Below are positions 61,038 to 64,000 of a stretch of DNA of 64,000 nt, piece by piece (position 1 is the stretch's first letter; every line of letters begins with the position of its first letter). The notes beneath the pieces were generated by a model. That model ran no database searches and was not told the DNA's origin. It saw only the letters and a program-made list of their open reading frames with translations. The position numbers were made by a program, and so were the translations under genes. The stretch is from Pseudomonas sp. BSw22131 (lineage in GTDB: Bacteria > Pseudomonadota > Gammaproteobacteria > Pseudomonadales > Pseudomonadaceae), in NCBI RefSeq assembly GCF_026810445.1, contig NZ_CP113949.1:310001-374000 (forward strand). The letters are read 5' to 3'.

Positions 61038-61718
61038 ATGGTGAGGTTAGGTAGGAAGTTATGTGCGTTTGCTTTGTGCGTGCTGTGTACGTTTGATGGC
61101 CTCGCCGATGAGATTTTTGACGAGCCCGAGCTGGAATATTTGCGGTTTGAGCCGCCTGTGTTTCCTGCCTCATTTCGCAAGCCGGTGTATGGGTCGGTAC
61201 GAATTACGTACTGGGTAACCCGCGATGGAAAGCTCATCGACCTTGACGTGGAGCACAGCTCCCATCCTGAATTCGAACGGTCAGTGCGTCAGGCCGTTGC
61301 ACTTTGGAGGTTCAAACCTTGGACTTCAAATCAATCTACTGCGCCAGCACTCAGGCAAGAACTGAACATTTTCTTTGGCGATACGTTGGGTGATAAAAAC
61401 ACTGCTGCGAGGACTCGCCTGCGTTTCATGGGGCTTAGATGTGCAGCTTTTAACAGTGAACATAGGGGTAGAAATAGAAGCCGGTCCAGAACGGCAGGGC
61501 AGATACTAGCCTCCCAGGCACTGGACATCACCCGGAGTCTCATTGTCGAGGGCGTGGTGGCCGAGCGTATTTCGTATCACGACAGCGTGGTGCTCTTTGA
61601 AAACTTTGACGCTTCCCTTCAGGGGCTCGTAAAAGCCTGTAGAGAAGCGCCCGAATCTCGGTATGTCGATAATCTGCCGCAAGATCTCCGGTTTGCGATA
61701 GGGGCGCCGGGTGCCTGA
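61038..61718 (+). CDS. Secreted TonB C-terminal domain protein
   Basis: The 226-residue protein has a Sec signal peptide (LGRKLCAFALCVLCTFDGLA, cleavage near ADE). A TonB-C type domain (residues 35-115) includes YGSVRITYWVTRDGKLIDLD and RQAVALWRFKPWT. The rest (residues 120-226) has no recognised domain. There is no N-terminal membrane anchor and Pro-rich spacer as in a true TonB, so it is likely a stand-alone periplasmic TonB-like protein. ATG 61038 is used, with GAGGGCG upstream. A hairpin follows. Confidence 0.75.
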   Translation: MVRLGRKLCAFALCVLCTFDGLADEIFDEPELEYLRFEPPVFPASFRKPVYGSVRITYWVTRDGKLIDLDVEHSSHPEFERSVRQAVALWRFKPWTSNQSTAPALRQELNIFFGDTLGDKNTAARTRLRFMGLRCAAFNSEHRGRNRSRSRTAGQILASQALDITRSLIVEGVVAERISYHDSVVLFENFDASLQGLVKACREAPESRYVDNLPQDLRFAIGAPGA

Positions 61719-61858: not shown

Positions 61859-62764
61859 TTACGAACTGGGAGATAACTCGCTAGCCGCCTGCGAAGGTTT
61901 CAAATACGGGCCGATTTCAGCGGCAAACTGATCCACGGCCGCATCGATGCCGTGTTTCAGCTTTACCGTTGCTTGTTCAATTTCTGCCGTGGCAGCGGGG
62001 CCGGGGATGAAGCGAATTTGCATGGCTTCGCGCAGAACAGGTGGTCCAATGTCGGCTTCGGCCTCAACTGGCGCGTCGAATAGCGCTGGAGCAGTCATCA
62101 ACTCAAGTATCAGCCTGGATTCCTTCAACGCATCTTCTTCAGCCTTGCGCTGAGCAAATGCCAATGCTGCCGCTTCCACCTGTTGCTCCGCGAACTGACG
62201 AGCAGCAGCCTGGGCGGCCAGACGAGCAGCCTCTTCCGCCTGACGCTGAGCCAACTGACGCGCCGCTTCTTCTGCCTGGCGCTGAGCCAATTGGCGAGCA
62301 GATTCTTCCGCCCGCTGTTGGGCCAGCCTTTGCGCTGCTTCTGCTGCCTGGCGTTGCGCCAGCTGTCTCGCCGCTTCCTCCGATTGGCGCTGGGCCAGTT
62401 GTTGGGCGGCCTGCGCCAGTTGAGTCTGAACGACTGCCGTCTGGTTCAGGAAGTTTTCCAAAAACCACGCGCCTTCACTTGCGAGCATTTGGGGGCGTAT
62501 GTGTGCAAGGCTCGGGGCTACTAACGTCGGATCGATCGTCCCGCCGGCAACGAAGTTGAAATCTTCCACAGTCAAATGTGGAGAGAACCCTTCATAAGCG
62601 GCAGGAAGCGACGCCAGCTTGACGCCTCTCAAGTGCCCGGCGACGTCTCGGTATCTGCCTACAATCTGAAGTTCAGACATACCAGCCGTAGCCCCTAAAT
62701 GCGCTGCAATTTCGCTTTGAAGCGCATGGGGGAGTTGTTGTAGAAAAGCTATGTAGCTACTCAT
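61859..62764 (-). CDS. Coiled-coil protein with tandem 12-residue repeats
   Basis: The 301-residue protein has a 115-residue N-terminal part of unknown type (SSYIAFLQQLPHALQSEIAA). Residues 122-181 are five tandem 12-residue units of the form QLAQRQAEEAAR, continued by a less regular Ala/Gln/Glu-rich helix to about 218. This must be a long, continuous alpha helix or coiled coil. A C-terminal part (about 80 residues) follows. It lies 55 bp behind the pyocin immunity gene in the same direction, so it may be the third gene of that operon. No family was recognised; ATG 62764 has a weak ribosome binding site. Confidence 0.7.
   Translation of the reverse strand: MSSYIAFLQQLPHALQSEIAAHLGATAGMSELQIVGRYRDVAGHLRGVKLASLPAAYEGFSPHLTVEDFNFVAGGTIDPTLVAPSLAHIRPQMLASEGAWFLENFLNQTAVVQTQLAQAAQQLAQRQSEEAARQLAQRQAAEAAQRLAQQRAEESARQLAQRQAEEAARQLAQRQAEEAARLAAQAAARQFAEQQVEAAALAFAQRKAEEDALKESRLILELMTAPALFDAPVEAEADIGPPVLREAMQIRFIPGPAATAEIEQATVKLKHGIDAAVDQFAAEIGPYLKPSQAASELSPSS
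62222..62401 (-). repeat. Tandem 36-bp repeats in the coiled-coil gene
   Basis: About five tandem 36-base units coding for the 12-residue repeat lie here. Units four and five are identical at the protein level; others differ at two to four positions. Such arrays can change in copy number by slippage or recombination. Confidence 0.75.
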
Positions 62765-62819: not shown

Positions 62820-63083
62820 TTACGGCATGGGCTTAAATCCGGGCTTTCCGTTTTCTGCGCGCCACTCTTTGATTGTCTTTACAATTCCCTCAGGAGAGTC
62901 ATCCGCTGACTTTTTCGGATAGTAAATAAGGTCTGAGCCGTCGGGATGCTCACCTAGTCTTTCAAACTCTAAAATTGCCTTACCATGTTGATGCTGCGTA
63001 CGATAATCGGCGCTGCATATCTTTTTTACGAGTTCCAGAAACTCCAGCTCAGTAATGTCTTCGATTGACTGATACCTTTGCAT
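62820..63083 (-). CDS. Colicin/pyocin DNase immunity protein
   Basis: The 87-residue protein is of the Im2/Im9 colicin E immunity family and protects the producer by binding its nuclease toxin. Helix II-III hallmark residues are present in ERLGEHPDGSDLIYYPKK (the conserved Ser-Asp-Leu-Ile-Tyr-Tyr-Pro motif), and SADDSPEGIVKTIKEWRAEN is equally typical. ATG 63083 has AAGGAG upstream. Its start overlaps the stop of the out-of-frame pyocin end (TAATG), the usual toxin-immunity coupling. It is intact although the toxin frame is broken. Confidence 0.93.
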   Translation of the reverse strand: MQRYQSIEDITELEFLELVKKICSADYRTQHQHGKAILEFERLGEHPDGSDLIYYPKKSADDSPEGIVKTIKEWRAENGKPGFKPMP

Positions 63084-64000
63084 TAGTGACTCTCCTTATT
63101 ACGGAATTCACCATGAATTTTATCGTGGTTAGCAGGGCTGTTAAATCCCAGATTGTCGACGCCGTAAACGTCTCCGCCTTGCGAGATAGGCCAGATGTGA
63201 TGGATTTCATACCATATCCTGCCCCCCTTTTCGCTCATCCCTTGGGGCTATTGGCGCCTTGCCTTGCTTAATGAGCTCAATATTTCTTTCGTTCATACCG
63301 CTAATTATTTCTGGATGCTTGGACATCTCCCGCCAGATAGCACGCTTCAAATTTTTAAACTCAGCGTACTGTCGATCCCGCAACGCATCGGCCACGACAG
63401 AAGGTATAGGCGACCCGAGGTTTTTTGACGCGCTCACCTGCCAATCTGAATCAATGATTCCACCCACGCCGCTGACGATGCCAGGTAAGTATCGTGGGCT
63501 TTTAAACAGCGCATATACCCGTGGAAGACCCGAGTCAGCCGGGAATACGATGATGTAGTCATCGAAATCCACTTGATCGTAAGTCGGGAATGCACCTAAC
63601 TCAGTTGATACGGGGGATACATTTTTCCCTGGATCGACTGGAAGGACCGGCCTTTCGCTCGGTGAGTATGTAGAACTGCTATCTGGTGTGATAGCAGGCG
63701 TCCAGACCAAAGAAGGGCCTGATTCACCGTCGCGAGTGAATGCGTATGTCTTACTAGCAGGGTTGAACACAAGCGAACGGACGCGAACCTTGGTGCCAAT
63801 ATTTACACCGTCGGTTTCCGCCCAGACAGCCTTGGCTTCGCCGTCCGACTCTTCGAAATTGAGTCGATGGGTGACATCTATCGTGCCGCCACGACTGGCT
63901 ATGAAATCAAGATCTACATCTGAGGGGATGCCCAATGCTGAAGCTGAAGTTGCCAAGGCGGCTGGCGGCATCTCCCCACTGCCCAACTCCGTAGGATAAA
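63083..64000 (-). pseudogene. S-type pyocin DNase, frameshifted before its HNH domain (5' end outside window)
   Basis: The visible part begins inside the pyocin translocation domain (GIPSDVDLDFIASRGGTIDV, then FNPASKTYAFTRDGESGPSL) and runs through FPADSGLPRVYALFKSPRYL into the start of the cytotoxic domain (VADALRDRQYAEFKNLKRAI). The frame stops at 63207-63209 after KGGQDMV. Another frame restores GGRIWYEIHHIWPISQGGDV and DNLGFNSPANHDKIHGEFRN, the HNH nuclease motif, ending TAA at 63083-63085. Removing one base from the six-C run (six G on the coding strand, 63222-63227) joins both parts. Receptor-binding parts lie beyond the edge. Confidence 0.88.

What the first reader, a model, noticed from the sequence alone, without database searches (positions are those of the whole stretch)
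63083..63240. Pyocin nuclease switched off by one base in a G6 tract, with immunity kept
The toxin frame breaks exactly at a homopolymer of six G (coding strand), one base away from restoring a complete HNH domain that still ends in TAATG with the immunity start. The HNH frame shows no further decay, and the immunity gene is intact. This could be phase variation or programmed slippage, giving a mix of toxin-positive and immune-only cells, or a sequencing error or recent mutation. Immune non-producers would be cheaters in pyocin competition.
Basis: partly seen in the sequence, partly recalled or inferred. Interest (0 to 1): 0.7.

Follow-up and report, generated by a model that had tools for sequence, protein, structure and literature searches.

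The report
Frame-broken DNase bacteriocin, immunity kept
A bacterial gene for a DNA-cutting toxin has lost its reading frame just before the active site while its protective partner gene is intact, most likely an ordinary loss of function rather than a genetic switch.

Summary
On the minus strand a 654-codon S-type pyocin-like ORF (start beyond the window) leaves the family's frame at a run of six G (63222-63227) and stops at 63207-63209. The next 45 codons, with the HNH motif, lie in another frame without a stop, and their end overlaps the start of an intact Im2/Im9-like immunity gene (62820-63083).

The switch idea is not supported. In 62 of 62 other distinct junctions of the genus the two DNase pieces share one frame, and a run of six G near the junction was found in 2 of these 62. 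In the 12 loci found with the same toxin, immunity and coiled-ORF layout, the toxin is broken in 5 and none of the other four is broken at the window's site; the immunity ORF is open in all 12. A sample of this assembly shows no sign of systematic homopolymer error, but a single error cannot be excluded without reads. The genome has a second, open DNase bacteriocin with its own immunity gene, so it is not a complete non-producer.

Best reading: ordinary, probably recent toxin inactivation with immunity kept, a pattern already described in Pseudomonas. Phase variation stays untested within the species (about 0.05).

The parts
63207..64000 (-). In-window part of the S-type pyocin-like DNase toxin ORF (654 aa in all; start codon beyond the window at L002 3672); ends without the HNH motif
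   Evidence: Pyocin_S PF06958 residues 424-553 and Col-Pyo_DNase PF21431 profile 1-88/124; aligns to colicin E9 DNase residues 2-97
63222..63227 (-). Run of six G (coding strand) at which the frame changes relative to the family
   Evidence: frame comparison
63083..63220 (-). 45-codon HNH piece in a different frame, no internal stop
   Evidence: PF21431 profile 90-123, E 6.1e-9; aligns to colicin E9 DNase residues 97/98-131
62820..63083 (-). Open immunity gene, 87 aa, Im2/Im9-like, with AAGGAG just upstream of its ATG
   Evidence: PF01320 E 1e-34; colicin E2 immunity protein E 4.1e-32; upstream context
61859..62764 (-). 301-aa ORF with Ala/Gln-rich repeats, third gene of this locus class
   Evidence: no Pfam match over its cut-off

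Best explanation
An S-type pyocin-like DNase bacteriocin gene inactivated by a frame break at a short homopolymer, probably a replication-slippage mutation (inferred). Shown: the ORF stops before the HNH motif, so the predicted product keeps the N-terminal and translocation parts and the part of the DNase that aligns to colicin E9 DNase residues 2-97, but not the HNH motif. Inferred: it cannot cut DNA. The immunity gene has its own ribosome-binding-site-like sequence, so it can probably still be made and may protect against toxins of the same specificity (inferred). The event looks recent because the separated HNH piece has no stop and no excess of amino-acid change.
For: One Pfam domain split between two frames. 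One frame in 62 of 62 other distinct loci, 33 of them not known from the ranking by whole domain alone. Toxin broken in 5 of 12 loci of the same layout: the window; L063, in-frame stop aligned to window codon 392; L064, frame break between codons 379 and 383; L065, several lesions; L083, in-frame stop at its fourth codon. Immunity open in 12 of 12. pN/pS of the HNH piece against five relatives 0.22-0.34, like the adjoining DNase piece 0.20-0.31. Precedent: PMC5277000 (passages), a frameshifted Pseudomonas bacteriocin gene with kept immunity.
Against: Synonymous sites are close to saturation, so recency rests only on lack of decay. Selective retention of immunity is not shown: with lesions spread by rough gene length, none in 13 immunity genes is expected with probability 0.42-0.51 (7 or 9 lesions assumed). 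No reads were available, so an isolated assembly error is not excluded.
Confidence: 0.72

Rival explanations
1. The frame break is a sequencing or assembly error at a homopolymer and the toxin gene is whole.
For: A homopolymer is a classic error site (recalled); one clean break and no other stop or frame change seen in this toxin gene. For runs of five, a codon-usage caller found a frame change at 2 of 55 callable same-strand places against 16 of 1511 at random places, a weak excess on small numbers.
Against: In 454 kb of this assembly 29 of 48 G/C runs of six or more lie deep inside called genes and 0 of 48 are followed within 60 nt by a called gene's 3' end; the other 19, the tract itself included (its ORF runs off the window and was not called), could not be judged. 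Related loci carry lesions at other sites.
Confidence: 0.2
2. The G run is a phase-variable (contingency) tract that switches the toxin on and off while immunity stays on.
For: Position just before the catalytic motif, immunity start kept, no decay downstream. A precedent exists in another genus: bacteriocin-like peptides of Neisseria gonorrhoeae judged likely phase variable, one gene with a poly-G tract of 6 to 12 (PMC11798529, passages).
Against: Frame kept in 62 of 62 other loci and the run mostly absent there. Runs of six are common in this genome: 37 in 454 kb. Sister loci are broken elsewhere.
Confidence: 0.05
3. Programmed ribosomal or transcriptional slippage makes some full-length toxin from this allele.
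For: Four A directly before the six G on the coding strand.
Against: Relatives encode the two pieces in one frame, so no conserved recoding is visible. No test of slippage was made.
Confidence: 0.03

Closest known systems
S-type pyocin / colicin E-type HNH DNase bacteriocin with Im2/Im9-like immunity
   Same: Pyocin_S and Col-Pyo_DNase domains, overlapping immunity gene
   Different: Toxin frame broken between the DNase body and the HNH motif; a third ORF follows
Orphan immunity genes and frameshifted bacteriocin remnants in Pseudomonas (PMC5277000, PMC4905994, PMC6170537; passages only)
   Same: Immunity kept beside a lost or frameshifted bacteriocin gene
   Different: There colicin M-like bacteriocins or P. 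aeruginosa S-type pyocins; here an E9-like DNase class with a coiled third gene
Likely phase-variable bacteriocin-like nap genes of Neisseria gonorrhoeae (PMC11798529; passages only)
   Same: Frame set by a homopolymer in a bacteriocin-like gene
   Different: There tract lengths vary over more than 10,000 isolates; here no variation is shown and the run is mostly absent in relatives

Membership tests
S-type pyocin DNase bacteriocin | Pyocin_S translocation domain | tested here: met
   PF06958 E 6.8e-32
S-type pyocin DNase bacteriocin | Complete Col-Pyo DNase domain with HNH motif in the toxin frame | tested here: not met
   Domain split between two frames; so a broken copy, not a working member
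S-type pyocin DNase bacteriocin | Immunity gene directly downstream | tested here: met
   PF01320 E 1e-34, overlapping start
S-type pyocin DNase bacteriocin | Killing of related bacteria | not testable with these tools
   No experiment
Immunity kept beside an inactive bacteriocin gene | Immunity ORF open while the linked toxin is broken | tested here: met
Immunity kept beside an inactive bacteriocin gene | Immunity is expressed and protective | not testable with these tools
   Only an AAGGAG and one promoter-like match upstream; the scanned region had 3 such matches against 2.5 in shuffles
Phase-variable contingency locus | Tract present in relatives | tested here: not met
   Longest G run near the junction 2-4 in 59 of 62, 5 in one, 6 in two
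Phase-variable contingency locus | Length varies within a clone or species | not testable with these tools
   One genome per species, no reads

The most novel reading that the evidence does not exclude
The G run is a young contingency tract peculiar to this lineage, so that a clone holds both toxin-making and immune-only cells.
Probability: 0.05. Interest if true: 0.6.

Novelty: new member of a known kind. Interest (0 to 1): 0.22.

Why it matters
It adds one case, and a small comparative set (toxin broken in 5 of 12 loci, immunity ORF open in 12 of 12), to the known picture of bacteriocin loci that lose the toxin and keep immunity. If reads showed tract variation, it would be a switchable DNase bacteriocin.

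Tried and rejected
Phase variation and programmed slippage: not supported. Close relatives for tract length: the best-scoring DNA match among 398 genomes of the genus was 71% identical; a draw of 194 relatives had 13 genomes with a match, all 13 already among the 27; the one scan of named genomes gave one locus, L063. A codon-usage frame caller across homopolymers had low power (2 of 36 runs of six could be called) and was replaced by the gene-based count; one search counted 10 kb twice and one search replaces it. Lesion counts as a test of selection for immunity: no power. A pattern count in the own genome (15 places, 11 for the reversed control) did not help. Family scans of the coiled ORF gave nothing over a cut-off in Pfam or NCBIfam and only a weak PADLOC hit, E 0.019. 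Papers: eight searches (in only 12 of 14 and 12 of 258 papers were listed). I saw no phase-variable pyocin in those titles and abstract beginnings; the likely phase-variable Neisseria nap genes are the nearest. Passages of PMC5358913, PMC3390384 and PMC2647930 added no case of this kind for an S-type DNase pyocin.

Full report
Observation. The coding strand is minus. The toxin ORF is 654 aa, starts outside the window (L002 3672) and stops at 63207-63209. A run of six G lies at 63222-63227. After it, 45 codons in another frame (63083-63220) carry the rest of the colicin/pyocin DNase domain: PF21431 is matched at profile positions 1-88 by the toxin ORF and 90-123 by the 45-codon piece. Against the colicin E9 DNase the pieces align to residues 2-97 and 97/98-131. 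The immunity ORF (87 aa, 62820-63083) matches PF01320 and is closest in the PDB to colicin E2 and then E9 immunity proteins. Its ATG overlaps the stop of the HNH piece and has AAGGAG upstream.

Relatives at the junction. Among loci found by DNA similarity, by rank of the whole domain (30 loci taken from a longer, capped list), in named genomes and by the third gene, 62 distinct junctions other than the window's had both pieces adjacent. All 62 have them in one frame, with an immunity hit after them. 29 of the 62 were known only from the ranking by whole domain, which favours unbroken copies; 33 were not. Five DNase hits without an adjoining HNH hit were left out: three copies of the window genome's own second bacteriocin, and one partial second hit each in L018 and L022. 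Three of the 62 show a stop at the far C-terminal end of the HNH alignment, read as the natural end. L065, counted as in frame at the junction, breaks its frame later, inside the HNH piece. The longest G run near the junction was 2-4 in 59 of 62, 5 in one and 6 in two.

The locus class. Toxin, immunity, then a coiled ORF of mostly 260-300 aa: found in 11 of 398 genomes of the genus with the N-terminal part of that ORF as query, the window's own included, plus L063. In these 12 loci the toxin is open from start to HNH in 7 (L066, L067, L080, L081, L082, L084, L085) and broken in 5. The broken ones: the window; L063, in-frame stop aligned to window codon 392; L064, frame break between codons 379 and 383, with a second HNH piece and immunity gene downstream; L065, first 66 codons unmatched, a stop at codon 258, loss of most of the Pyocin_S region from about codon 401, and a frame break in the HNH piece; L083, in-frame stop at its fourth codon. 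None of the other four is broken at the window's site. Three of the five (L063, L064, L065) have a lesion within about codons 379-401, just before the Pyocin_S domain; whether that is chance I did not test. The immunity ORF is open in 12 of 12 (13 genes). The coiled ORF is open in 10 of 12; it appears broken in L065 near its start and in L083. For L085 it was seen in the ORF list and the alignment, not as an N-domain hit.

Is it recent, and is it real? The HNH piece has no stop, and its pN/pS against five relatives is 0.22-0.34, like the adjoining DNase piece (0.20-0.31). Synonymous sites are near saturation, so this dates nothing precisely. In 454 kb of the same assembly, 48 G/C runs of six or more occur; 29 lie deep inside called genes and none of the 48 is followed within 60 nt by a called gene end; 19, the window's own tract included, could not be judged. 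For runs of five, a frame caller gave 2 changes in 55 callable places against 16 in 1511 random ones, too few to weigh. So a systematic homopolymer fault is not indicated, but one isolated error is not excluded.

Meaning. The genome has a second DNase bacteriocin (open frame of 629 codons at C1:735 kb) and holds two Colicin_Pyocin immunity genes and two Pyocin_S domains in all. So loss of this toxin makes the strain a non-producer for this toxin only. Immunity kept next to dead bacteriocin genes is known in Pseudomonas: PMC5277000 describes a frameshifted colicin M-like gene beside kept immunity and speaks of so-called cheaters (passages); PMC6170537 reports 27% (31/114) orphan S-type immunity genes (passages); PMC4905994 reports protection by an orphan immunity gene of PAO1 (passages). 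Selection for keeping immunity is plausible but not shown here. A phase-variable bacteriocin-like system is thought likely in Neisseria gonorrhoeae, with a poly-G tract of 6 to 12 (PMC11798529, passages), so the switch idea is not absurd for a tract of this length.

Verdict. Real in the assembly, ordinary, a new case of a known kind. The switch idea is not supported but needs reads to be closed.

Noticed in passing
window 61859-62764 (-); L063, L064, L066, L067, L080, L081, L082, L084, L085: A coiled ORF of mostly 260-300 aa with a partly conserved N-terminal part and Ala/Gln-rich repeats follows the immunity gene in this pyocin class; no Pfam match over its cut-off. Function unknown; perhaps an accessory or release protein (inference).
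   Followed up: partly
L064 2119-2506 (-): A second HNH piece plus immunity gene lies directly behind the first pair, a tandem tip-immunity module.
   Followed up: no
L063 1900-3087, L064 2697-3882 (reverse complement), L065 4385-5412: Three of the five broken toxins have a lesion within about window-toxin codons 379-401, just before the Pyocin_S domain; a shared weak spot or chance.
   Followed up: no
L002, L063, L065, L083, L085; in part L066, L067, L081, L082: The class often lies between an oxidoreductase-like gene and a transporter-like gene (names recalled from the sequences, no family scan), which suggests a shared insertion site; in L066, L067, L081 and L082 the transporter was seen only by ORFs opposite to it. 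L064, L080 and L084 lie elsewhere.
   Followed up: no
window 61038-61718 (+): TonB C-terminal-like protein (PF03544, E 2.2e-7) on the opposite strand beside the coiled ORF.
   Followed up: no
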